Source: Blastocatellia bacterium (GTDB lineage Bacteria > Acidobacteriota > Blastocatellia > Chloracidobacteriales > JADJPF01). Taken from it: DNA of 64,000 nt. The position numbers and the translations under genes were made by a program. The stretch covers positions 62,001 to 126,000 of the forward strand of contig JANWYG010000022.1 in assembly GCA_025057015.1 (NCBI GenBank). The letters run 5' to 3'. The notes under the pieces were generated by a model. It saw nothing but the letters and a program-made list of their open reading frames with translations, was not told the DNA's origin and made no database searches. Numbering within the stretch: the stretch's first letter is position 1; each line of letters begins with the position of its first letter. Positions 7,841 to 62,349 of the stretch are shown piece after piece.

Positions 7841-8974
7841 TTACTTCAAGAGCTCGTCGACGGTCAGCTCTGGAGCAGCTTTGCCGTGCTCATAGACTAA
7901 TAGCCCTATGTCCTCGTAGTAAGGACGTATTCGCGAGCTTAATAAGCCGATGCGCTTTAGGTTGGGAATCACGCGCCGAAACATAGTCTGTCTAAAGAGA
8001 TTGAGCAACCGACTGTCAAGTATTAGCTTGTCCCAATCTGAGCGCTTCATTTTGTGGGAGTAATACTCATCATAGACTTCGTGCATGAGGAATCTGTTTC
8101 TGAGTAGCAGCGATAGCTCGAATGCCAGGTCTTCGCGGTCCCTGCGTTCAGTCTCAGGAAGCTGTTTGTAGAACACTTCCAGTGCTAGCACGCCGTAGTG
8201 TACATGTCGGGCTTCGTCTTTTATGACATACTTGAGAATTTCTTTGAGCAGCGGGTCTGAAGTAATTTGTCGAATGGTGCCAAAAGCTCCTAGGGCAAGC
8301 CCTTCGATCATGATCTGCATACCTAGAAACTTTATGTCCCACCGACTATCTGTCATCAATGTATCTATGACAACATACAGATTGTCATTTATTTCATAGA
8401 GTTTGTTAAGCTTTTCGGTCAAATATCTGTGAAAAGCTTCCACGTGACGGCCTTCATCTACGACTTGAGTACTTCCGTAGAGTTTTGCGTCAAGCCATGG
8501 AACAGCTTCTATTACCTGTGCTGAGGCATAGAGTGCGCCTTGTTCGCCGTGGAGGAACTGGCTGAGCAGCCAACTAAGGACGGCGTATCGTTGCTCTGCA
8601 CGTTCTTTATCGTTCATCTTTTCCCAAAGAGGTAGACTAGAGGAAGGGACAAATTCGTCTGGTAGCAGTGTCTCTTTTTGGGGATCTACATCCTGAGACC
8701 AGTCTATATCTTTGGAGACGTTCCACTGAGCTGTCTTAGCAGCCTCATAAAGACGAGTCATTTCGGGAAATTCGCGCCTGTAGTGCCAGTTGAAATTGGC
8801 ATTGTAGACCACCGCAAGTTCGGTCTGCTCGTGTTTTTTAGCACACTGCTTGATAAAACCTCTGAAAGCTGGCCCTAGGAGCGAGGCTAGGACACGTACG
8901 TTTTTGACCATAGTGGCTTCGCGTAGCAGCGGTCCACTCTGCATTAGGTTATTTACAGATCGACTTATGTCCAT
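7841..8974 (-). CDS. Ferritin-like diiron protein
   Basis: A 377-residue, mostly helical protein with the diiron signature of the ferritin/ribonucleotide-reductase-like superfamily. Two ExxH elements are visible, in VVDEGRHVEAF and in KDEARHVHYG, each preceded by a helix Glu (in LHGEQGALY and MIEGLALGAF). The members I can compare are oxygenases, oxidases or desaturase-like enzymes that activate O2 at the Fe2 site; the substrate cannot be read from the sequence. It lies 7 bp after a TetR-family regulator on the same strand, which probably controls the pair in response to a small hydrophobic ligand (inference). Confidence 0.75.
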   Translation of the reverse strand: MDISRSVNNLMQSGPLLREATMVKNVRVLASLLGPAFRGFIKQCAKKHEQTELAVVYNANFNWHYRREFPEMTRLYEAAKTAQWNVSKDIDWSQDVDPQKETLLPDEFVPSSSLPLWEKMNDKERAEQRYAVLSWLLSQFLHGEQGALYASAQVIEAVPWLDAKLYGSTQVVDEGRHVEAFHRYLTEKLNKLYEINDNLYVVIDTLMTDSRWDIKFLGMQIMIEGLALGAFGTIRQITSDPLLKEILKYVIKDEARHVHYGVLALEVFYKQLPETERRDREDLAFELSLLLRNRFLMHEVYDEYYSHKMKRSDWDKLILDSRLLNLFRQTMFRRVIPNLKRIGLLSSRIRPYYEDIGLLVYEHGKAAPELTVDELLK

Positions 8975-48516: not shown

Positions 48517-49093
48517 CGTAAGATTAACGGGCTAGTCGATTTCTCGGGAAGTCCTTGTGGGCAGTGTCCTCACAGAAAAACCTTAGTCGAGCTGTAAGTC
48601 GATAGGCTGGAAATTGACCGATGGTGTGGCAAAAATCTCAAGCTCTTTGGCAAGTGAAGGGCTGTTGTTTCTTTACACGTGAGGTAAGCTTTTTGTCGGC
48701 GGTTGCGTCGTTTTAATATGGCTGTTTCTCTTCACAAGTGAGGAATAAGCATGTGAGACTGCTTGTGTCGCCGATGTCGAGGAGCTGTTTCTTCGAACGT
48801 GGGTAAGCTCTCGTTGCACCAGCACTGGTAATCAGTGAGCTGTTGTTTCTTCATACCTGAGGAATAGGCCACTGAATACTCCTCAAATGCAACACAAATC
48901 CGTGTTTCTTCACACGTGAGGAATAGGCAGCTTTGCTCATATACTCTTGCACTGATAGTTGTTTCTCCCAAAGATGAGAGAATGAGCGCAAGTGTTTGTT
49001 TAGCTGTCGTATTTCCTCACGGGTGGGGATGGTGCAACACGCGCGGATCTTCGATGAGCAATGGCGGCCGTATTTCCTCACGGGTGGAATGGT

Positions 49094-49143
49094 GCCTCAC
49101 CTTCTAGGTGAGGCCTGGATTGAAAATTGAAACTGGATTGAAA
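49094..49143. repeat. Hairpin element with GGATTGAAAC tail, copy 1
   Basis: GCCTCACCT and AGGTGAGGC (49094-49102, 49106-49114) form a perfect 9-bp hairpin around TCT. It is followed by CTGGATTGAAAATTGAAAC and then a second GGATTGAAAC. An ATTGAAAC end is typical of many Cas6-processed CRISPR repeats. It interrupts the degenerate array and recurs at 52367. Confidence 0.65.
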
Positions 49144-49215
49144 CAAGGTTGGGCCGCACAGGTACATCAAACTACCACCTGTACAGATTACTGTCTGCCT
49201 GCACGCAGGTAGAGT

Positions 49216-49304
49216 GACGTGGCTGCGCGCGGATGGTCCGCGGGTATAGCAATTCGTTGTGGTGTGACGCTGAAACGACGTGGCTGCGCGCGGATGGTCC
49301 GCGG
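49216..49304. repeat. 28-bp exact direct repeat inside the array
   Basis: The same 28 bases, beginning GACGTGGCTGCGCGCGGATG, occur at 49216-49243 and 49277-49304, 61 bp apart. They occupy two consecutive spacer-like positions, so this looks like a duplicated unit whose flanking repeats have since diverged or been rearranged. Confidence 0.8.
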
Positions 49305-49846
49305 CCGCGCTCCTTACTGCTCGCACAGGGGTAGAGTGACGGAGATATCCAGTGCTCGGCTCCTTCAGCAAACCTTACCGTCCGCACGCAGATAGAGTGA
49401 CGATTTTCGGCGGTCGAAGGAATCACAGAAGAGTCTGTCCCTGCTAGGAGGATAGGGTGACGCAGTAGAGACTAGCCGGCCAATGAAAGTAGTTATTCTC
49501 GCTGTCTGTGTGCAGGTGAGTGATGACATGCTCGTCACGGCACTTTTGTAGGCAGTCCTGGTCAGTTGTCCGCAGGTTGGGTAAACAACAGGCTTGCTAG
49601 AAGTCTCAAAAGTTAGTTCCTACGCAGGTAAAGGTGGTAAAACGGGTGAAGTGTTTCCGGTATCTAGACGATCACTCTTTGCAAACGGATAGGAAGACAT
49701 CGATATACTAGTGATATGCAGTCAGTCCTTGCTCAGCAGGGGGGAATGACTTTTCGTGACGGCGATTGGCAAATAAGGAGAGTCGCTCCTTGCTCAGGAG
49801 AAATAACTGCTTGGCCGACTAGTTTTGGATTTATCAAATACCCAAG

Positions 49847-51934
49847 TCAGTCTTTGCTCAACTGGGGCAACTGTTGATTTTCTGTGCTGCCAACTAATCT
49901 CGGCCTAGGCGATTGCAAGTATATGCCACCTGAGAACGAACCTAAAATTAGACGTCCGTTTTTAGACAAAATAGTCGTGATCCTATCGGAAGGAAGATCC
50001 TTGTCTATGCGGCTAAAAGACTCCCCTTTGTTATCCGAAACATATACTCCACCGCTGCGAAAATCGCCTACCGCTATCTTGGCGGGATCGCTGTCAAAAT
50101 AAACGGCAATAGGTTCACCGTAGGGGATACCTTTGCCGCGTCGTTGCCAGCTTTGCCCGCCGTCTCTAGAAAGATAACAGCCTTTTTGTGTGCCCACTAT
50201 CACGAGCTGTGGATCGTGAGGGCTTACTGCAACTAATTGCACCACAGGTAGACCTTCTTCTATGCCGTCGAGCCGTTGCCAGCTTTTACCATCGTCATCT
50301 GTACGATATAACCCCTCAGCAGTGCCAGCATAGATCTGCATCGGACGGCCGGAGGCTACCGACAACACTTTACCGTCGTAGTTTGCTATTTTCATACGTA
50401 CAGGTTTTCCTGAGGAACTGCTCTGCGAGAGCTTAAACAGTCCTGACCAACTCGCGATCAAGAGAGCAGGCATCTTGGTCTCAGCCGATTCACGATAGTA
50501 GCTAAGCCCGGTTACTCGGTCGCTAATGTGACCACTGGTAGGAGGTACACTAGTTTTGAGCGCTACCTTTTTAGCCGTCAGTTTAGGCACAAGATTTGCC
50601 CCTAGCTTGCTCCAACTATGGCCAGCGTCGGTAGATCTGAAAAGACCTGTGTTCGTGCCGGCATATATTACTTTTCCATCAGGCGATTGAATCAGAGAGT
50701 AAATGTCTTGTGCTTCTAGCCCTCGACCGATCCTTTGCCAAGTGTGTCCTCCATCGTCGCTGCAGTATAGTCCGCTGTCAAAACCGTTAAACAGTGTCGC
50801 AGCATAGATTCTGTCTGGATGTAGCTTGTCTTCCATGACTACTGACACGTACCTGTTGACGAACCCGCTGTTGGATGGCTTGAAGGTGTTACCTTCATCT
50901 GTGCTGAGCATTACACCACCATATTTTGTCCCTATAACGATGCGTGTAGGCATTTTCGAGTGGATGGCAATAGCATTAACTACTGTGCGTAGAGAAGTTA
51001 CGAGCCGCCACGTGCTTCCTCGGTTAGTGCTCTTCCACAACCCTTCTGTAGTGCCGGAATAGATAACCTCTTTCTTTACAGGGTCTGGATAAATCACGTG
51101 TGTTCTGCGGCTGGTAAAAGGTATACCCTGGAACTTGGTCCAAGTAGACGCTCCGTCGGTACTGCGATAGATGCCGCTACAAGCGCTCAGTAGCAATGAG
51201 TTTCTATCTTCAGAGTCTATGACAATGCTGAATATATCCGAGTCATCTATTAGTTGTAGCCGTTTGTCGCTTGGGTGCCCCTTGACTAGGAACCAACTGT
51301 TGCCACCATCGGTCGTCTTCCACGGCAAGTGCTCTGTTCCTATGTATATCACTTTGGGATCTACAGGGTCGATCGCTACGGAATGTAACCTCACTAAGTC
51401 AGGATGGCCTTCGGGAGTGATTCTGCGCCAAGTCTCACCGGCGTCGTCACTTTGGTAAGCTCCGTCTATTGCTACGGCTACGAGAATACGGCTGTCGCTT
51501 GGAGCTATTGCTACTGAGCGTAGCGAGTGTCCAGAAATTCCGGTTAACTCCCTCCAAGTAATCCCCCGATCTGTACTCTTATACATAGTGCCCTGATGAT
51601 CATCGGCTATATACCAGAGAGGCACATAGATAGTGTTCGGATCAGTTGCGTCTATGACTATCTTGTCTACGCTGTAGCCAGGCCGACTAAACGAGCGTAG
51701 TCGTTGCCAACTGACCGCACCGTCGGTGGAGAGGTAGATCTGCCCGTCATTCGTGCCTAGATAATACCTATCTGGGTCCATAGGGTCGACTGCGAGAGAG
51801 CGCACATCCCCGCCATAAGGGCCTACTGTAATGAAACTGAAGTCGCCAGCTAACACACTGCAGCAAAACGTCACTATCAGAATCACCAACCGAAACATAG
51901 CTTTCCTCCTTGCCCTCATGAGAAGAGTATACAA
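49847..51934 (-). CDS. Secreted BNR/Asp-box (sortilin/VPS10-like) beta-propeller protein
   Basis: 695 residues. A signal peptide near the N-terminus ends at SVLAGDFSF. About a dozen Asp-box motifs (S-D-G-x-x-W type, such as STDGAVSW, SDDAGETW, TTDGGNSW, SDDGGHTW, SRDGGQSW) repeat every 40-60 residues, predicting one or two multi-bladed propellers of the kind called VPS10/sortilin-like or photosystem-assembly-like. They act as binding or glycosidase scaffolds; no catalytic residues can be assigned. The last codons overlap a repeat unit of the degenerate array. It is divergent from the small gene at 51988. Confidence 0.85.
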   Translation of the reverse strand: MYTLLMRARRKAMFRLVILIVTFCCSVLAGDFSFITVGPYGGDVRSLAVDPMDPDRYYLGTNDGQIYLSTDGAVSWQRLRSFSRPGYSVDKIVIDATDPNTIYVPLWYIADDHQGTMYKSTDRGITWRELTGISGHSLRSVAIAPSDSRILVAVAIDGAYQSDDAGETWRRITPEGHPDLVRLHSVAIDPVDPKVIYIGTEHLPWKTTDGGNSWFLVKGHPSDKRLQLIDDSDIFSIVIDSEDRNSLLLSACSGIYRSTDGASTWTKFQGIPFTSRRTHVIYPDPVKKEVIYSGTTEGLWKSTNRGSTWRLVTSLRTVVNAIAIHSKMPTRIVIGTKYGGVMLSTDEGNTFKPSNSGFVNRYVSVVMEDKLHPDRIYAATLFNGFDSGLYCSDDGGHTWQRIGRGLEAQDIYSLIQSPDGKVIYAGTNTGLFRSTDAGHSWSKLGANLVPKLTAKKVALKTSVPPTSGHISDRVTGLSYYRESAETKMPALLIASWSGLFKLSQSSSSGKPVRMKIANYDGKVLSVASGRPMQIYAGTAEGLYRTDDDGKSWQRLDGIEEGLPVVQLVAVSPHDPQLVIVGTQKGCYLSRDGGQSWQRRGKGIPYGEPIAVYFDSDPAKIAVGDFRSGGVYVSDNKGESFSRIDKDLPSDRITTILSKNGRLILGSFSGGIYLQSPRPRLVGSTENQQLPQLSKD

Positions 51935-55094: not shown

Positions 55095-56167
55095 TACAGA
55101 GCCTCCCTCATAGCTACGGTGTATGCTAGCCCGTAGATTCTAACCTTATAGTCTAGGCTAGGCCTTTGTTTGCTCTCCTTGTATAGTGCCCCGTAGACTT
55201 TCCTACCGTAATCGGGAAAAGAGCTACCTTCTTTGAAAGAGAGCAGCGTAGGCTTCCATACTTGAGCAACTTCTGATAAGTAGGAAGTTTCCAGAAATCC
55301 TTTCCGTCTTTCTAGCTGTCCGTAAACCTCGCTGAGGCGACTTTTCAGTTCGCGTCTGTCAACTTCGTTAGGATGAAACAGCGAGAGAGCTACTCGCCGA
55401 GAACCATTTTGTGGCAAGCTGAGCGAGTTCTTTTCAAATGACACTTCGCAGTGCCCACGTCCTATCGTAGTGTCCCCTCCGATGCCTTTTTGACAGATGT
55501 AGAAGAGGGCGGATTTCAACATCTGGTCATATTTTTCTGTTGCGTCAATTAGTAAAAACAATCCCGTGCGGATGTTTAGCTTGGGTATGCAGGTCGTGGA
55601 AACCACCTTTTGATAGAACAATTGGCCGTGTTCGCTAGGTGCTGTGGAAAAGCTGAGTCGGTTGAGGGTATTGCGGGCAATCTCGCCGTTGTACAACAGA
55701 GACTTTATAGTCCTAACTTGCTCGTACTCTTCTTTGCTTAAAAGGGCACCTGCATGATCGAAGTAGTCCTTGCCTAATTTGTCGATTATCTGCTGCTCGG
55801 TTAGCTCACCGGCTAGCAGCTTCTCGAATAGTACTCTGGAAAGTAGGCTCGTCTTTTTGAACTTTTTGACTTTGGCGTACTTTTGTTCGTCATCTATGTT
55901 TAGCTTTGGAGGAGGCAACATAGGTCGAGGAAAGAACAGTACTCTACAGTTTTTGTCCTCGAAGAAGACGTTGAGTGAGCTGATAAGGAAAGGCGGCGTA
56001 GTGTCTTTTTCTATCGAGTGGTCGAACTCTTCTAGTAAGGATTCTAGTTCTTTCCTGCCATAGAGCAAACGTATTGTCCAAGCCAAAGCTCCGAAAAGTG
56101 TATCGGAGCGAGGGATATTGTTTGAAAACGGCGCTTGTGGATAAAGATAGGCTATTATCCTTAGCAT
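55094..56167 (-). CDS. csm4: Type III-A CRISPR RAMP protein Csm4
   Basis: 357 residues. The Csm4 start LYPQAPFSNNIPRSDTLFGAL and the Gly-rich GIGGDTTIGRGHCE loop are present. Csm4 binds the crRNA 5' tag and contacts Cas10. It overlaps csm3 by 7 bp. Length is a little above the 290-310 residues common for Csm4, with the extra sequence mainly at the C-terminus. Confidence 0.9.
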   Translation of the reverse strand: MLRIIAYLYPQAPFSNNIPRSDTLFGALAWTIRLLYGRKELESLLEEFDHSIEKDTTPPFLISSLNVFFEDKNCRVLFFPRPMLPPPKLNIDDEQKYAKVKKFKKTSLLSRVLFEKLLAGELTEQQIIDKLGKDYFDHAGALLSKEEYEQVRTIKSLLYNGEIARNTLNRLSFSTAPSEHGQLFYQKVVSTTCIPKLNIRTGLFLLIDATEKYDQMLKSALFYICQKGIGGDTTIGRGHCEVSFEKNSLSLPQNGSRRVALSLFHPNEVDRRELKSRLSEVYGQLERRKGFLETSYLSEVAQVWKPTLLSFKEGSSFPDYGRKVYGALYKESKQRPSLDYKVRIYGLAYTVAMREAL

Positions 56168-56973
56168 TTCGACTTGTCCTTATATACCTCTTCCTGCTTT
56201 AGAAAAAGCTCCTTTATGCCTTCTATCTTTTCTGTGTTGAACTTGGAGAGCGGATGTAGTTCGTCGGGCTTCTTTTTTTCCTTGGTTATTCCCTTTCGGT
56301 AATCGTTTAGCGTGTACACTATGGGCTCACCTAGATGGAAAGCTATTTGCCCGTAGCCTCTAGAGCCACTCCCTCCGAGCGCCGAATGTTCAAGGAGCCG
56401 CATAGCCATAAAGACTTCTGGAATCAGGTCTATATCTTTCTTAGAAATACTTTCTACTTCGTAGAGATTGAACAGTATTTCGAAGTCAAATTTGGAGCCT
56501 GCGGGCACCCTTTCCATATGACGTGGGCCTGAAGGAGGCTTAGAAGTAAGTCGGTTAATGCTTACTTCTGTCTTTATCTCGACTCGCGGAAGGCCTTGTT
56601 CAGCTTCGAGCTTTTCCAGCTTTTCACGAGTAGATTTATCTGCTTTTGCGTCTCTTACTATAAGTCTAGTAGGGCCGGCCTTGCGATCTTTTTCGGCTGG
56701 AGCACCGAAAAGTCGTGAGATGACGTCATTTACATCTCCTGATGAATACACCTGTCCGTCAGATGTGACTTTTCCTTCGGCCCACTCCATCAACGATCGC
56801 ATCTTGCCTTTGAGAGAAGAGCCAGGAATGTACGGAAAGCCATCTATAGGATCGCGAATTACAGGATTGTCTATACCCCCTATTTCATAGCCGCCTTCTG
56901 TACCTCCGATGTGTAGCCCCGTAATACACTCGATCTTGCCGTATATAATCAAAGTTCCTATTGTTTGATTCAT
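56161..56973 (-). CDS. csm3: Type III-A CRISPR RAMP protein Csm3 (target RNA endonuclease)
   Basis: 270 residues. The GGTEGGYEIGGIDNPVIRDP region contains the conserved catalytic Asp (Asp35), and PYIPGSSLKGKMRSLMEWA is the Csm3 signature. A Gly-rich HSALGGSGSRGYGQI loop closes the fold. Csm3 forms the backbone that cuts target RNA every 6 nt. The Asp is intact, so slicing is expected. ATG overlaps the csm2 stop by 4 bp (ATGA). Confidence 0.93.
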   Translation of the reverse strand: MNQTIGTLIIYGKIECITGLHIGGTEGGYEIGGIDNPVIRDPIDGFPYIPGSSLKGKMRSLMEWAEGKVTSDGQVYSSGDVNDVISRLFGAPAEKDRKAGPTRLIVRDAKADKSTREKLEKLEAEQGLPRVEIKTEVSINRLTSKPPSGPRHMERVPAGSKFDFEILFNLYEVESISKKDIDLIPEVFMAMRLLEHSALGGSGSRGYGQIAFHLGEPIVYTLNDYRKGITKEKKKPDELHPLSKFNTEKIEGIKELFLKQEEVYKDKSKC

Positions 56974-57450: not shown

Positions 57451-59919
57451 TTAGTTCTCCTTTCCTCTAGTCTTTAGAGCTACATAACCGACTAGTACGG
57501 GGATATACTTTCTATGGTTATAAATTTCTTGCTGCAAAGTTGCTCTAAGATTTGTATCTTCTACGTTTCTCGTTAAGCTGTACAGAAACCTAGGTATCCA
57601 AATTAAATCTTCCCTGTCCTTTTTTGAAAGATCCCTTTTAGGATCGATATGGTTGCGGTATAGAGAAAGCACGTGGTACAAGAACTTGCGCGAGAGATCG
57701 CCGCTTTCTATGGCTTTTATCATTTCGTCTCCGAGCGAGAGTATCTCTTCTAAGCGCTTCCAATTTACTTTCTGCTCTAGAAAAGCAAGTGAATTCTTAT
57801 CCATGTCTGTATCATCTATCCTGCTACGCTTAGCGATTTCGTCCAGTGCTTGGCCTGCGTCTTCGGCTGAACGAGCTACGGGATACTTGCCTTTACATAG
57901 AGCTATGCCGCCGCTAATGTGTAGATCTGGATTATATGCGCAGAATTTGCCAAAGTTCTTGTTTATATCGCACGCAAGCTGTAATACTTCGTTCCACGCA
58001 CCCAAGACAAACAGGTCATCGCCTCCGGCATAGGTAGTGTATAGATTTTTGCCTGCTATAAGCGTATTGAGATGGCCACTAAAGAACCAATCGAACATTC
58101 TAGAGACGTTAGCAACTTTAGAGAGCGAACTTTCTTGCTGACTGAGGCCTTTTGCAAAGATTAGGCCGAGATTATCTACGTCCATTCTTAGTACACCGAG
58201 AAAATTTGCTCCTTCGGACTTTTTGGCTAGTTCATCGAATTCTGCTATATGTCCTTTTTCTGTCTTTACTTCACCGGCGAACAGATCGAAACCGTAGGCT
58301 ACATCTGGCTCGATGTGCTGAGGAAGAAAGTCTATGTACGTATTGCGGGCATTGGCAAAAGTGAGGCAAAGTTCGGCTCCTTGGAAGGCTTGTTTATTTT
58401 TGGAAAGCAGCCAGCAACGGTTAAAATCCGGGAACTCTATCAGCGCGTGTTCTGTGATGCTTTTGTAGTGGTGAGCTTCTTGTTCGTTGCGAGGAATGCG
58501 GGCTACGTCTTTACTTAGTTTGTTCCAATCGGGGCTGCGTCGCAGTTGAATCGTTTTTGCTTCAACTAAAACTCTACCTATGCGGTCGAAGTGTAAGCTT
58601 TGTAGGCTGCGAATCCGTTCATCGTCGTTATATTCTTGAGATAGGCTTCTTTCCTGTTCGTCGATATCTCTGCCTGTATCACAGCAGATATCGACTCCCA
58701 TTTTGAGCACTAAGCGGTTTTCCCAGGCGCTGTCTAAGGGTTCATCGGATTCAAATAGAGTATCGAACTGTTGCAATTTGAGCGTGGCGACCTTACGACT
58801 TAGCTCTTCTTTGACGCTGGAGAAATTTTTGAGTTGGTCTTTTGTGACTTCAAGATCGGCTATGATAACTCCTAACGCACCGCGCCATTCTTTCCAAATC
58901 CAACTTTTGACGCGACGGCGCAACTGGTCGAGCTTGGTTTTAACTTTGTTAGTGTTTGGAGCAATCACTAGGAAGTGGCCACCTGTGGCCCAGAGCGTGT
59001 TGACGGACTCGAGTTCAAGCTCTGACACGGTGTAATCGGCTAGAGTTTTCAGCAGGAGGTTTAGGTAAAACGATCTCCCGCGTAGCCTACGCGCTGCTCC
59101 AGCGTATACTTCTTGGCCGTTAAACGCAGGATTATAGATGAAGTTTTGTATACCTGACAGATCACTTTCAATCAGAAGGAAGCCACCGTTTTCATCCTTT
59201 TCTTGGTGTAACTCGTATAAACATACGGCTAGTGCTGCTGTGACGCGGCTGTGATCGTAGAGCGAGATGCTCGGATAGTCTACGTATGTAGCGCTTGGAA
59301 CAGACCAAGTATATTTGTGTAGGAGATGGACTAGTGAGTCAAAGTAGGAGCGGAAAGATGCAGCTGGCAGCAGGTCATGTTCTTTTATGAACTTATCCCA
59401 GAGCTTTTTGTAGTCTTCTACTAGCGAGATATTTTTGTTTTCTATCTTGCTTGGAAAGATTTCTTCTGTAATAGACAGAGGGCGAAGAAGGTAGAAATAT
59501 TCTGAAGGTTTGCGCTGGGCGCGGGGTTTTAGACAGATGCGTTCGCCGATAGCTTCGAGTCTATCGAAGGTGGGTTGGCCTTTGGGATCGTCTGGTGGGC
59601 GTTTTTCTCTGTCAAACAAGGCTGCGAGGTGATCAGCCGTTTGGACTATTCTTGCGAAAGTTTCTTTTCTTGGATCATCTTTTAGGTATTCTGGGTTGTG
59701 GTGAAACTTTGCATAAAGGCCTGCTTCGGCAAATTCGGCATTTTTCTTTTTGACATGTTTAGTGAAGAACTCCCCGCTCCAGACGGCGTGTAGGCCATGC
59801 TTACCTACTTCGCCTTTCTCGAATTCGCTGTAGAGATGTTTATTTTCACCTGTACGCTGCCAGAACTTACCTATGTCGTGTAGCAATGCTCCGAGTGCTA
59901 CTAAGTCACGCTCCTTCAT
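57451..59919 (-). CDS. cas10: Type III-A CRISPR large subunit Cas10/Csm1 with intact HD and GGDD
   Basis: 822 residues. The N-terminal HD domain shows LLHDIGKFWQR (His14-Asp15), the site for ssDNA cleavage. Two Palm domains follow; the second has YAGGDDLFVLG with GGDD at 632-635, the site that makes cyclic oligoadenylate from ATP on target RNA binding. The SDLSGIQNFIY segment is typical of Csm1. Both active sites look intact. The ATG follows the cas6 stop directly. With GGDD intact, a cOA-activated effector is expected somewhere in the genome; no recognised csm6 or csx1 is in the window. Confidence 0.94.
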   Translation of the reverse strand: MKERDLVALGALLHDIGKFWQRTGENKHLYSEFEKGEVGKHGLHAVWSGEFFTKHVKKKNAEFAEAGLYAKFHHNPEYLKDDPRKETFARIVQTADHLAALFDREKRPPDDPKGQPTFDRLEAIGERICLKPRAQRKPSEYFYLLRPLSITEEIFPSKIENKNISLVEDYKKLWDKFIKEHDLLPAASFRSYFDSLVHLLHKYTWSVPSATYVDYPSISLYDHSRVTAALAVCLYELHQEKDENGGFLLIESDLSGIQNFIYNPAFNGQEVYAGAARRLRGRSFYLNLLLKTLADYTVSELELESVNTLWATGGHFLVIAPNTNKVKTKLDQLRRRVKSWIWKEWRGALGVIIADLEVTKDQLKNFSSVKEELSRKVATLKLQQFDTLFESDEPLDSAWENRLVLKMGVDICCDTGRDIDEQERSLSQEYNDDERIRSLQSLHFDRIGRVLVEAKTIQLRRSPDWNKLSKDVARIPRNEQEAHHYKSITEHALIEFPDFNRCWLLSKNKQAFQGAELCLTFANARNTYIDFLPQHIEPDVAYGFDLFAGEVKTEKGHIAEFDELAKKSEGANFLGVLRMDVDNLGLIFAKGLSQQESSLSKVANVSRMFDWFFSGHLNTLIAGKNLYTTYAGGDDLFVLGAWNEVLQLACDINKNFGKFCAYNPDLHISGGIALCKGKYPVARSAEDAGQALDEIAKRSRIDDTDMDKNSLAFLEQKVNWKRLEEILSLGDEMIKAIESGDLSRKFLYHVLSLYRNHIDPKRDLSKKDREDLIWIPRFLYSLTRNVEDTNLRATLQQEIYNHRKYIPVLVGYVALKTRGKEN

Positions 59920-60891
59920 CTATACCTCGATTCTGAATTCTCCCAGTCCGAAGCTTGTGCTTGCTCCGATGTTGAGAATTTCGCCTGCAGCAAGTAGCGG
60001 TAAGAACTTTGCTAGGTTGCCTCTGTATCTCACGGTACCTACGAGGCCACCTATTTTAAGCTTCGTCTTTTGCCGCGAGGAATATCTTTCTAAGTCTATC
60101 CAGCGTAGAGAAGAGCTTAAGGTTGCTACTTTCGAAGCCTGTTCGAGTAGATCCTTGAAGTCCAGTTCTAGTGCTTCTTGGCCATGTAGTATCATAAGCT
60201 GCGATAGCCGCCGCAAGATGTTACGCATCAGTAGTTGAAAGTCTATATGGGTTTGTAAGTCGCCGTTTGAGCGAATGCGTACCGGAGAGATGAATCTGAC
60301 TTTGAGGCTATCTTCGGCGAGATGTAAGTTTTCTAGGCGTTTCTCGACCAATTCTGACAGAGGAACAGGCTTGAGGTTGCTCGAAAGAGTTCCTGTTTCG
60401 GCTGAAAATATCTCCCTACCTTCTCTGTCCACTACATGAGCCAGCTCGAACTTTCCTCGATGAACGCCTAATCCCTGCCTTGCCATCTTTTGGATGGTGT
60501 AGATGACAAATGGTAAAGAATATACGGCTTTGCCCATCAGGAGTAGTCGGAAATAAAGTACATCTCCTTGATGGTAGATCTGCCTTTTGCTGTTCCAATT
60601 GTAGTCGGGCTCTATGGGTAGGCTAAGTACGAAGGGATGCGGAGCGCGTGCTTGCCCCTGGAGCTGAATTATGTTTTCTGGGACGGGAGTCTCAAAGATA
60701 TACGGATAGATGCATCGAGTTTTAACTATGCATCTCTGGCATTCTCCGTGATTTACTATACAAACTACGCTTTTAAGAGCTCGGCCAAAAGCTCCTCTTA
60801 AAGTAGAGCCTAGGAAAGCAGGTAGCTCTGCTCTTTCGCAGGATCTGATTTTTATCTGGCTCTGTAGAAGCGGTAAAGATAGTCGTTGCAT
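59920..60891 (-). CDS. cas6: Cas6 family CRISPR RNA endoribonuclease with N-terminal Cys cluster
   Basis: 323 residues. RAMP-like ferredoxin folds with a C-terminal Gly-rich GASTSFGLGEFRIEV, the Cas6 signature. Between the strands is a four-cysteine cluster (Cys44, Cys51, Cys54, Cys60), a zinc-finger-like insertion seen in a subset of Cas6 proteins. Cas6 cuts precursor crRNA within repeats to leave an 8-nt tag, often ATTGAAAC. The catalytic His cannot be assigned with confidence. First gene of the cas6-cas10-csm2-3-4-5 operon, and it is preceded by a promoter with an inverted repeat. Confidence 0.88.
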   Translation of the reverse strand: MQRLSLPLLQSQIKIRSCERAELPAFLGSTLRGAFGRALKSVVCIVNHGECQRCIVKTRCIYPYIFETPVPENIIQLQGQARAPHPFVLSLPIEPDYNWNSKRQIYHQGDVLYFRLLLMGKAVYSLPFVIYTIQKMARQGLGVHRGKFELAHVVDREGREIFSAETGTLSSNLKPVPLSELVEKRLENLHLAEDSLKVRFISPVRIRSNGDLQTHIDFQLLMRNILRRLSQLMILHGQEALELDFKDLLEQASKVATLSSSLRWIDLERYSSRQKTKLKIGGLVGTVRYRGNLAKFLPLLAAGEILNIGASTSFGLGEFRIEV

Positions 60892-60966
60892 CTTTTTAAG
60901 TTTTGTCTAAATAAAGTAGCCTTTGATTGCGAAAGCTCTGATAGGTATTCTGCTTAGCAAAGAGCT

Positions 60967-60996
60967 ACTCTAGCATAGAACTACTGCTAGAGTCAA
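60967..60996 (-). promoter_or_regulatory. Promoter of the cas6-csm operon overlapped by a perfect inverted repeat
   Basis: On the minus strand, TTGACT (60991-60996) and TAGAGT (60967-60972) form a -35/-10 pair with an 18-bp spacer. Arms ACTCTAGCA (60967-60975) and TGCTAGAGT (60985-60993) are exact complements separated by 9 bp and span the spacer and parts of both boxes. This is the geometry of an operator that would block polymerase. Confidence 0.6.
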
Positions 60997-61032
60997 ACTT
61001 GTCTTAAGTCTTAGGTGAGCATTTTTGAAAAG

Positions 61033-61061
61033 TTGACATTCTAGTGCTAGGTGAATAATAT
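61033..61061 (+). promoter_or_regulatory. Strong sigma-70 promoter of the cold-shock gene
   Basis: TTGACA (61033-61038), a 17-bp spacer and TAATAT (61056-61061) are near consensus. Transcription from here leaves a 5' UTR of about 120 nt before the GTG start at 61188, similar to the long thermosensitive leaders of cspA mRNAs. Confidence 0.75.
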
Positions 61062-61187: not shown

Positions 61188-61394
61188 GTGTCTAGAACGC
61201 AGGGAAAGGTTAAGTGGTTCAACAATGCCAAGGGCTATGGTTTTATCGAGCGGCCAGGCGGAAGAGATGTGTTCGTTCATTATTCTGCTATCAAGAAGGA
61301 AGGGTACAAGTCGCTCACTCAGGGCGAAGTTGTCGAGTTCGACATTACAGACGGTCCGAAAGGACCGCAAGCTGAGAACGTGACTAAAGTCTGA
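61188..61394 (+). CDS. csp: Cold-shock domain protein (CspA family)
   Basis: 68 residues. [20 protein letters not shown] contains RNP1, and [12 protein letters not shown]2, of the cold-shock domain; it binds single-stranded RNA and DNA and acts as an RNA chaperone. GTG 61188 has GGGAGGAAGAG upstream and matches the family N-terminus. Long leader and strong promoter suggest cold or growth control. It is divergent from the cas operon with about 300 bp between them. A functional link to CRISPR is not implied. Confidence 0.95.
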
Positions 61395-61431: not shown

Positions 61432-62349
61432 TTAAACTTGTTCATCTTCAGCGTTTGGGTAAAGCATTTTCTTTGGAGCAGGTAGTGCTGCTTCCAATCT
61501 CTTTGCGAAGTTATCTATCCTTACCACGGTCATAGAAAAGATGCTGCCTAGTTCTTCTGCTAAGTTGTCATTAATGTTTGGGTCGGTGAGGATTAGAAAG
61601 GTGTGAGCTTTGTCTAACTTAAGCAGTTTTGAGACTCTGTTGTACTTGTCTATGTGTCTGCGGTAGTCTCCAGTCTTAGATTCCAGCCAGAAAACCTCGT
61701 CCTCGGCTTCGAAAAGCATGTCTAGCTCGAAGTCTTCTCCGCTGGGGAGCATGATCTGGGGGTTGCAAAGGTAGGAGACGTTGAGATCCCTAGCTTGAGA
61801 CAGAGAAAGTACTACGGTTTTTATATATCTTTCTAGCCATTTTCCAGCAAAGAAATTGAGAGCTTTAGGAGATGTACTTGGCACTGCATAGAGGGTAAAC
61901 AAAGGTGAGTTTTTATAGTTATATTCCGTCAAAAAAGCTATATTATATAGTGTAACGCAGAGATTAGTTACGTCGGATATTGCCTGAGGTTTATAGTTTT
62001 TTAGATTTAACGTAAAGCTGCTACCTTGATTCATGCAAGACTTTATGTTGTCTAGGAGTTCAGCTATAGAGCCAAACCTTTCTCCCATAAAAGTTGCAAT
62101 GCGGTCAAGTGTCGAGTCTCCTTCTTGTTCGGGCGGGATAGTTTTGATCTGAAATCCTCGAGCTTCGAGAAATCGAACTATTTTGCAAGTATCATTGTTA
62201 GCGGGCTGGGGCAAGTCATGCTCTATTTTCTTTTTTGTTTGCACAGCCAACTTCGGTTGAGGTGGTCTTCCGCCTAGAGCTTCCGCTATGCTTTCCAAGG
62301 CGATTGCTATACGTTCTAATAGGGTCACTATGTCAGGTCTATTCATCAT
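61432..62349 (-). CDS. Uncharacterised PD-(D/E)XK nuclease-like protein
   Basis: 305 residues. The C-terminal half fits a PD-(D/E)XK nuclease: Glu173 in GKWLERYIKTVV, then Asp210 in GEDFELDMLF, then Glu223 and Lys225 in FWLESKTGDY, followed by a helix and FLILTD. The N-terminal half (about 50-165) is a separate domain with LDRIATFMGERFGSIAELLDN, SFTLNLKN and CVTLYNIAFLTEYNY; I recall this pattern from cyanobacterial hypothetical proteins, with no known function. No CARF motif was seen. It overlaps the upstream secreted-protein gene by 11 bp and faces csp, 540 bp from cas6. A role as a CRISPR-linked effector is only speculative. Confidence 0.65.
   Translation of the reverse strand: MMNRPDIVTLLERIAIALESIAEALGGRPPQPKLAVQTKKKIEHDLPQPANNDTCKIVRFLEARGFQIKTIPPEQEGDSTLDRIATFMGERFGSIAELLDNIKSCMNQGSSFTLNLKNYKPQAISDVTNLCVTLYNIAFLTEYNYKNSPLFTLYAVPSTSPKALNFFAGKWLERYIKTVVLSLSQARDLNVSYLCNPQIMLPSGEDFELDMLFEAEDEVFWLESKTGDYRRHIDKYNRVSKLLKLDKAHTFLILTDPNINDNLAEELGSIFSMTVVRIDNFAKRLEAALPAPKKMLYPNAEDEQV

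What the first reader, a model, noticed from the sequence alone, without database searches (positions are those of the whole stretch)
60967..60996. Perfect 9-bp operator-like palindrome across the cas promoter
ACTCTAGCA-N9-TGCTAGAGT overlays the spacer and edges of the predicted -35/-10 of the cas6-csm operon. Type III operons are seldom known to carry such an operator, so it suggests a dedicated repressor.
Basis: partly seen in the sequence, partly recalled or inferred. Interest (0 to 1): 0.55.

Follow-up and report, generated by a model that had tools for sequence, protein, structure and literature searches.

The report
Possible repressor site at cas6 promoter
A perfect 9-letter inverted repeat sits exactly on the best-looking promoter of a type III-A CRISPR operon and could be a landing site for a repressor, but it is a single copy in a single genome, no relative examined shares it, and chance is not excluded.

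Summary
In detail: ACTCTAGCA-N9-TGCTAGAGT, perfect, at 60967-60993; the stated end, 60996, is the edge of the -35 box. It lies on the best sigma70-like promoter on the minus strand before cas6 (TTGACT-18-TAGAGT, extended TG, about 69-nt leader), divergent from a cold-shock gene with its own promoter. Alone the palindrome is unremarkable: 8 perfect repeats of this class in the window, 4.3 +/- 2.1 in shuffles. Coincidence with so good a promoter is rarer: 1 of 300 shuffled windows, or 20 of 300 at a looser cut-off. It is unique in the genome; 20 of 20 near-matches are centred in ORFs. It is absent upstream of 19 of 19 cas6 loci examined in relatives, but the nearest full-length Cas6 is 51% identical, so conservation cannot be fairly tested. 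No obvious DNA-binding regulator was seen by eye nearby. Best reading, at about even odds: an operator for one repressor, with the arm and spacer lengths of CIRCE but another sequence. A palindromic repressor site in a type III-A locus is already in print (CasR at csm6, M. tuberculosis, PMC9953421), so the kind is not new.

The parts
60967..60975 (.). left arm of the dyad, ACTCTAGCA
60985..60993 (.). right arm of the dyad, TGCTAGAGT
60991..60996 (-). -35-like box TTGACT of the cas6 promoter; its last three bases are in the right arm
60967..60972 (-). -10-like box TAGAGT with extended TG (60975-60974), wholly inside the left arm; predicted start about 60960, leader about 69 nt
60950..60990 (+). 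imperfect 16-bp tandem repeat (2.4 copies, consensus CTGCTAGCAAAGAACTA) overlapping the dyad; adds a third half-site-like TGCTTAGCA at 60951-60959
   Evidence: the only tandem array at score 50 in the window; 8 of 40 shuffled windows have one
59920..60891 (-). cas6
   Evidence: PF10040, 65.1 bits; PADLOC Cas6
57451..59919 (-). cas10/csm1
   Evidence: TIGR02578, 586.7 bits
56970..57449 (-). csm2
56161..56973 (-). csm3
   Evidence: TIGR02582
55094..56167 (-). csm4
   Evidence: TIGR01903
53856..55094 (-). csm5
   Evidence: TIGR01899 (102.7 bits, cut-off 38.3)
61033..61061 (+). promoter-like TTGACA-17-TAATAT for the divergent cold-shock gene
   Evidence: score 12.52
61188..61394 (+). cold-shock protein gene, GTG start, divergent from cas6
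   Evidence: PF00313, 103.3 bits; start and stop read

Best explanation
The dyad is an operator for a homodimeric repressor, identity unknown, that binds across the -35 to -10 region of the cas6-cas10-csm2-csm5 promoter and blocks RNA polymerase, so that the type III-A operon is held low until the repressor is released. Shown: the perfect dyad, its position on the best-scoring predicted promoter, its uniqueness. Inferred: that the promoter is used, that a protein binds, and that binding represses.
For: The dyad covers the best minus-strand promoter before cas6, a coincidence met in 1 of 300 shuffled windows at that promoter score (20 of 300 at a looser one). The 9-N9-9 layout is that of CIRCE (PMC7464140, passages), and this genome carries one canonical CIRCE copy in front of ORFs that read as groES and groEL, so a single-copy operator of this geometry has a likely precedent in the same cell. 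The 299-bp intergenic stretch holds 4 copies of TGCTAG/CTAGCA, reached in 12 of 3000 shuffles, and is the densest such place in the window (looked for after seeing the site); a third half-site-like TGCTTAGCA sits one repeat unit away. Repression of a type III-A cas gene through a palindrome is documented elsewhere (PMC9953421).
Against: Perfect repeats of this class are common in the window and mostly lie in coding sequence. The dyad is not found upstream of 19 of 19 relatives' cas6 loci. No relative has a match with fewer than 3 mismatches, and forward matches (25) are fewer than control matches (68) over the 57 relatives (summed by hand). No obvious neighbouring DNA-binding regulator was seen by eye and no second site exists. 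The arms' centres are 18 bp apart, not a whole number of helical turns. No transcription start is mapped. In the nearest published case the cas6 promoter was the negative control.
Confidence: 0.48

Rival explanations
1. Chance. The promoter is real, but the dyad is an accidental inverted repeat with no binding protein.
For: 8 such repeats in the window against 4.3 +/- 2.1 expected, 5 of 8 in ORFs; 76 of 3000 shuffles of this intergenic stretch contain one; at a looser promoter cut-off 20 of 300 shuffled windows show the same coincidence; no conservation seen; 3 of 19 relatives' cas6 upstream stretches carry a perfect repeat of at least 9 bp of their own, each different. The site was picked from a 64-kb window.
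Against: Exact centring on the best promoter of the operon is rare at that promoter's score (1 of 300).
Confidence: 0.36
2. Promoter symmetry. The two arms are mirror-image extended -10 elements (TGCTAGAGT on each strand) of a divergent or bidirectional promoter pair, so the dyad reflects polymerase contacts and not a repressor.
For: TGCTAGAGT reads as TGn-TAnnnT in both directions. Bidirectional bacterial promoters made of pseudo-symmetrical sequence are known (PMC12825309 and PMC10268837, abstract starts only). In the five g14 genomes the inverted repeat before cas6 reads as two back-to-back -35 boxes.
Against: A rightward promoter using the right arm scores only 3.6, while the cold-shock gene has its own promoter at 12.5; symmetry over 9 bp is more than two -10 boxes need.
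Confidence: 0.1
3. An RNA hairpin: the dyad works as a stem-loop in a transcript crossing it, as attenuator or terminator.
For: It folds as RNA at -14.1 kcal/mol on the minus strand and -11.6 on the plus strand, z -2.3 and -2.2.
Against: It would lie upstream of the predicted cas6 start. By eye no run of 5 T in 8 follows on either strand (at most 4 of 8, minus strand). The terminator scan allows loops of 3-8 only and so could not have listed it.
Confidence: 0.05
4. A known global operator such as CIRCE (HrcA) or a MerR-type site.
For: Same arm and spacer lengths as CIRCE; a MerR-type dyad also begins in the -35 box (recalled).
Against: Position by position only 1 of 9 arm letters equals CIRCE, and the genome's one CIRCE copy is canonical. 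The spacer is 18 bp, not the 19-20 bp of MerR-type promoters (recalled), and the dyad runs through the -10.
Confidence: 0.01

Closest known systems
CasR (Rv1776c) operator upstream of csm6 in the type III-A locus of Mycobacterium tuberculosis (PMC9953421; passages seen)
   Same: Palindromic site acting negatively on a type III-A cas gene.
   Different: There a 20-bp motif of two partly matched inverted repeats 4 bp apart; on csm6 it lies at -331 to -306 while the transcription start is given as -132, so upstream of the -35 and not over the core promoter; the protein is a known TetR type with a second, stronger site at casR itself; [quoted passage not shown]
CIRCE, operator of HrcA (consensus TTAGCACTC-N9-GAGTGCTAA, PMC7464140; passages seen)
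   Same: 9-bp arms, 9-bp spacer, repressor site in a core promoter, one copy in this genome.
   Different: 1 of 9 arm positions identical; controls heat-shock genes; the genome has a separate canonical copy.
MerR-family operators in the -35/-10 spacer (recalled)
   Same: Dyad begins in the last three bases of a TTGACT -35 box and is centred near the spacer centre.
   Different: Spacer 18 bp and not 19-20; dyad includes the whole -10.

Membership tests
Operator of a cas-operon repressor | dyad overlaps the promoter | tested here: met
   predicted promoter only
Operator of a cas-operon repressor | conserved upstream of orthologous cas6 genes | tested here: inconclusive
   absent in 19 of 19 loci from 18 relatives, but the closest full-length Cas6 match is 51% identical and no same-genus genome appears among the relatives
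Operator of a cas-operon repressor | bound by a repressor in vivo or in vitro | not testable with these tools
   none
CIRCE (HrcA) | 9-bp arms with 9-bp spacer | tested here: met
   layout
CIRCE (HrcA) | arm sequence TTAGCACTC / GAGTGCTAA | tested here: not met
   1 of 9 positions by direct comparison; a CIRCE search with 3 mismatches finds only C18:35549
MerR-type operator | promoter spacer of 19-20 bp with the dyad inside it (recalled) | tested here: not met
   spacer 18 bp, dyad covers the -10
CasR operator | 20-bp motif, inverted repeats 4 bp apart | tested here: not met
   9-bp spacer here; motif
CasR operator | cognate TetR-type CasR in the genome | not tested
   no search for CasR was run
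CRISPR repeat or mini-array | resemblance to a CRISPR repeat of the genome | tested here: inconclusive
   the clear array found (L075 10844 onward) has a different repeat, compared by eye; arrays were looked for only in the window and L075-L079, and the repeat served by this type III-A system is not known
Intrinsic terminator | stem followed by a T-run | tested here: not met
   read by eye (at most 4 T in the next 8 bases); the scan excludes loops over 8

The most novel reading that the evidence does not exclude
The dyad is the site of an unrecognised regulator that ties a type III-A operon to the divergent cold-shock gene and to the CARF/PD-(D/E)XK-like nuclease gene beyond it, so that one switch in the shared control region sets CRISPR effector and ancillary nuclease levels.
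Probability: 0.06. Interest if true: 0.5.

Novelty: new member of a known kind. Interest (0 to 1): 0.22.

Why it matters
If real, it would add a bacterial example of direct transcriptional control at the core promoter of a type III-A effector operon, and give a 27-bp bait for finding the regulator; in the rows listed by my literature searches the closest case is CasR, which acts at csm6. I made no search of the literature on this lineage. If not real, it is a good example of how readily a perfect dyad falls on a promoter by chance.

Tried and rejected
Genome-wide regulon: a 3-mismatch search of the own genome gives one other place, equal to the control count. A trimmed pattern with 2 mismatches gives 20 other places; I examined all 20 (5 loci, 14, and L002), and the centre of each lies in an ORF of at least 90 aa in a mechanical ORF list (in L093 the site runs past the ORF's end). 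The forward excess over the reversed control there (21 against 8) I attribute to base composition: TGCTAG is common in the window (51 copies); this was not tested further.

Relatives: pattern search of 58 genomes: no match on a contig that bears a Cas6 hit; 25 forward against 68 control matches outside the own genome, all forward ones with 3 mismatches. Within the three same-family genomes the forward count is higher than the control (6 against 1), but none of these is near cas6 and I did not follow them. Of 24 relatives with a Cas6 hit I looked upstream in 18 (19 loci); G016, G021, G025, G032, G040 and G044 were left out, their hits being split or partial. Start codons were picked by a rule and may be off. 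Searches for closer Cas6 proteins (phylum sample of 396 at E 1e-60, class 162 at E 1e-70, plasmids, genome contigs) gave nothing above 51% over the length of the protein; partial hits reach 53-58% over 40-90 residues. Viral contigs: no exact match. Plasmid DNA similarity: none.

Cold-shock side: 9 of the 19 relatives' cold-shock loci held were read; none has the dyad or TGCTAG upstream, and DNA similarity begins no earlier than about 15 bp before the start codon. Cas6 and cold-shock hits are not neighbours in any of the 24 other genomes with Cas6, by the places listed (G022 has no cold-shock hit; most are drafts; in G021 both are on one contig, about 131 kb apart).

A conserved inverted repeat upstream of cas6 in five g14 genomes looked like a positive control, but reads as two back-to-back -35 boxes of divergent promoters.

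The tandem-repeat hit on the site suggested iterons; one hit per window at that score is met in 8 of 40 shuffles, so I give it little weight.

Full report
What is there. The window holds a type III-A operon on the minus strand, cas6-cas10-csm2-csm3-csm4-csm5 (60891 down to 53856). Upstream of cas6 and pointing the other way is a cold-shock protein gene (GTG 61188 to stop 61394). Between them lie about 300 bp. At 60967-60993 is the perfect dyad ACTCTAGCA-N9-TGCTAGAGT. The finding's end, 60996, is the outer edge of the minus-strand -35 box.

Promoter. The scan reports TTGACT-18-TAGAGT with an upstream TG on the minus strand. A rough sigma70 matrix, with frequencies recalled and not fitted to this organism, ranks it first among minus-strand candidates at 11.74, against 9.08 for the next, and 6 of 386 equal tiles of the window contain anything as good. 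The -10 lies wholly in the left arm and the last three bases of the -35 in the right arm. The cold-shock gene has a separate promoter, TTGACA-17-TAATAT at 61033-61061, score 12.52.

Chance. Eight perfect inverted repeats with arms of 9 or more and loops of 3-20 occur in the window. Sixty dinucleotide shuffles give a mean of 4.3, sd 2.1, maximum 9. Five of the eight lie inside ORFs, one in a stretch of decayed repeats, one behind the cold-shock gene. The dyad alone is therefore unremarkable; in this one intergenic stretch it would arise in 76 of 3000 shuffles. What is less usual is its coincidence with a strong promoter: at a score of 11.7 or more, 1 of 300 shuffled windows has such a pair, and at 9.0 or more 20 of 300. 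The first threshold was set by the site itself, so a fair figure probably lies between. The stretch also holds 4 copies of TGCTAG/CTAGCA (12 of 3000 shuffles), two of them in the arms themselves.

Genome. The full dyad occurs once in 3.33 Mb; with 3 mismatches one more place appears, equal to the control count. A trimmed pattern with 2 mismatches gives 20 further places and all 20 are centred in ORFs. I thus see no regulon and no sister site at a regulator gene. This does not rule out an operator: the canonical CIRCE element also occurs once, at C18:35549, upstream of ORFs that read as groES and groEL (named from their sequences, not by a family search). ORFs of window 40000-64000 and of the next 16 kb were read by eye; none looked like a DNA-binding regulator. 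The nearest signalling gene I noticed is a hybrid sensor kinase at L079 3489-7853. The first 40 kb of the window were listed without translations and L078 was not read for genes.

Relatives. No other genome of the genus appears among the relatives; three genomes share the family. The nearest full-length Cas6 is 51% identical (G001), then 48% (G018). In 19 upstream stretches from 18 of 24 relatives with Cas6, neither the dyad nor a single TGCTAG occurs. Three of these 19 carry a perfect repeat of 9 bp or more of their own, each different, which shows how common such repeats are before cas6. At this divergence loss of an operator is expected, so the test is inconclusive and not negative. Forward matches with 3 mismatches are fewer than control matches over the 57 relatives, 25 against 68 (summed by hand).

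A lesson from relatives. In the five genomes of one other genus (g14), a CGTCAA/TTGACG inverted repeat lies upstream of cas6 in 5 of 5. It reads as two back-to-back -35 boxes, with a -10-like box by eye at a fitting distance on each side, serving cas6 and a divergent ORF. This is an ordinary cause of inverted repeats before cas6. The same reading fits the window dyad poorly, because a rightward promoter from the right arm scores only 3.6.

Known kinds. HrcA's CIRCE shares the 9-N9-9 layout (PMC7464140, passages), but only 1 of 9 arm letters. MerR-type sites (recalled) need a 19-20-bp spacer. CasR of M. tuberculosis shows that a palindromic repressor site in a type III-A locus is known (PMC9953421, passages), though its site lies well upstream of the csm6 core promoter and the cas6 promoter was the negative control. 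A review of cas regulation (PMC10013973, 12 of 16 passages shown), a haloarchaeal cas repressor paper (PMC11434293, abstract and outline; type I-B) and the rows listed showed no closer case; one search lists a post-transcriptional (Rsm) control of several CRISPR-Cas systems, type III included (PMC8450108, listing only).

Verdict. A real, well-placed dyad, with about even odds of being an operator and about one in three of being chance. The regulator is unknown. Interest is modest, since it rests on one site in one genome and the kind is already known.

Noticed in passing
window 61432-62349 (-): Gene just beyond the cold-shock gene matches PADLOC CARF4/CARF_PDDEXK (E 1.7e-9, residues 46-246 on profile positions 128-312 of 364), with no Pfam match; PDB chain 8z4i, a CARF dual-activated nuclease, only at E 0.47. 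It looks like a type III ancillary nuclease with a short or diverged sensor part.
   Followed up: partly
window 48600-49860: Blocks of diverged repeats spaced about 60 nt look like decayed CRISPR arrays; one unit (49093-49145) nearly equals, by eye, the repeat of the array at the end of contig C16.
   Followed up: partly
L075 2731-11186: Type I-C-like operon (genes named from their translations; only cas1 was searched for) followed by an array with 71-73-nt period cut off by the contig end.
   Followed up: no
L076 9917-10902 and L077 9675-10292: Further Cas1-like hits on contigs C3 and C23, each in two pieces, with no tandem array found by TRF in these 20-kb stretches; L077 has 61-nt-spaced repeats at 8871 and 8915.
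   Followed up: no
L006, L007, L008, L009, L011 upstream of cas6: Besides the divergent -35 pair, a second inverted repeat (about GTCAyTTCrC...GGTGAgrTGrC, by eye) follows the -10 in these five, with some mirrored changes; it may be a leader hairpin or an operator.
   Followed up: partly
L005 upstream of cas6 (G018): A long inverted repeat with arms of about 24 bp and a nested smaller one lies before cas6; the long one was seen by eye, nature unknown.
   Followed up: no
window 61007-61018 and 61043-61054: Short direct repeat AGTCTTAGGTGA / AGTGCTAGGTGA on either side of the -35 box of the cold-shock promoter; may be chance.
   Followed up: no
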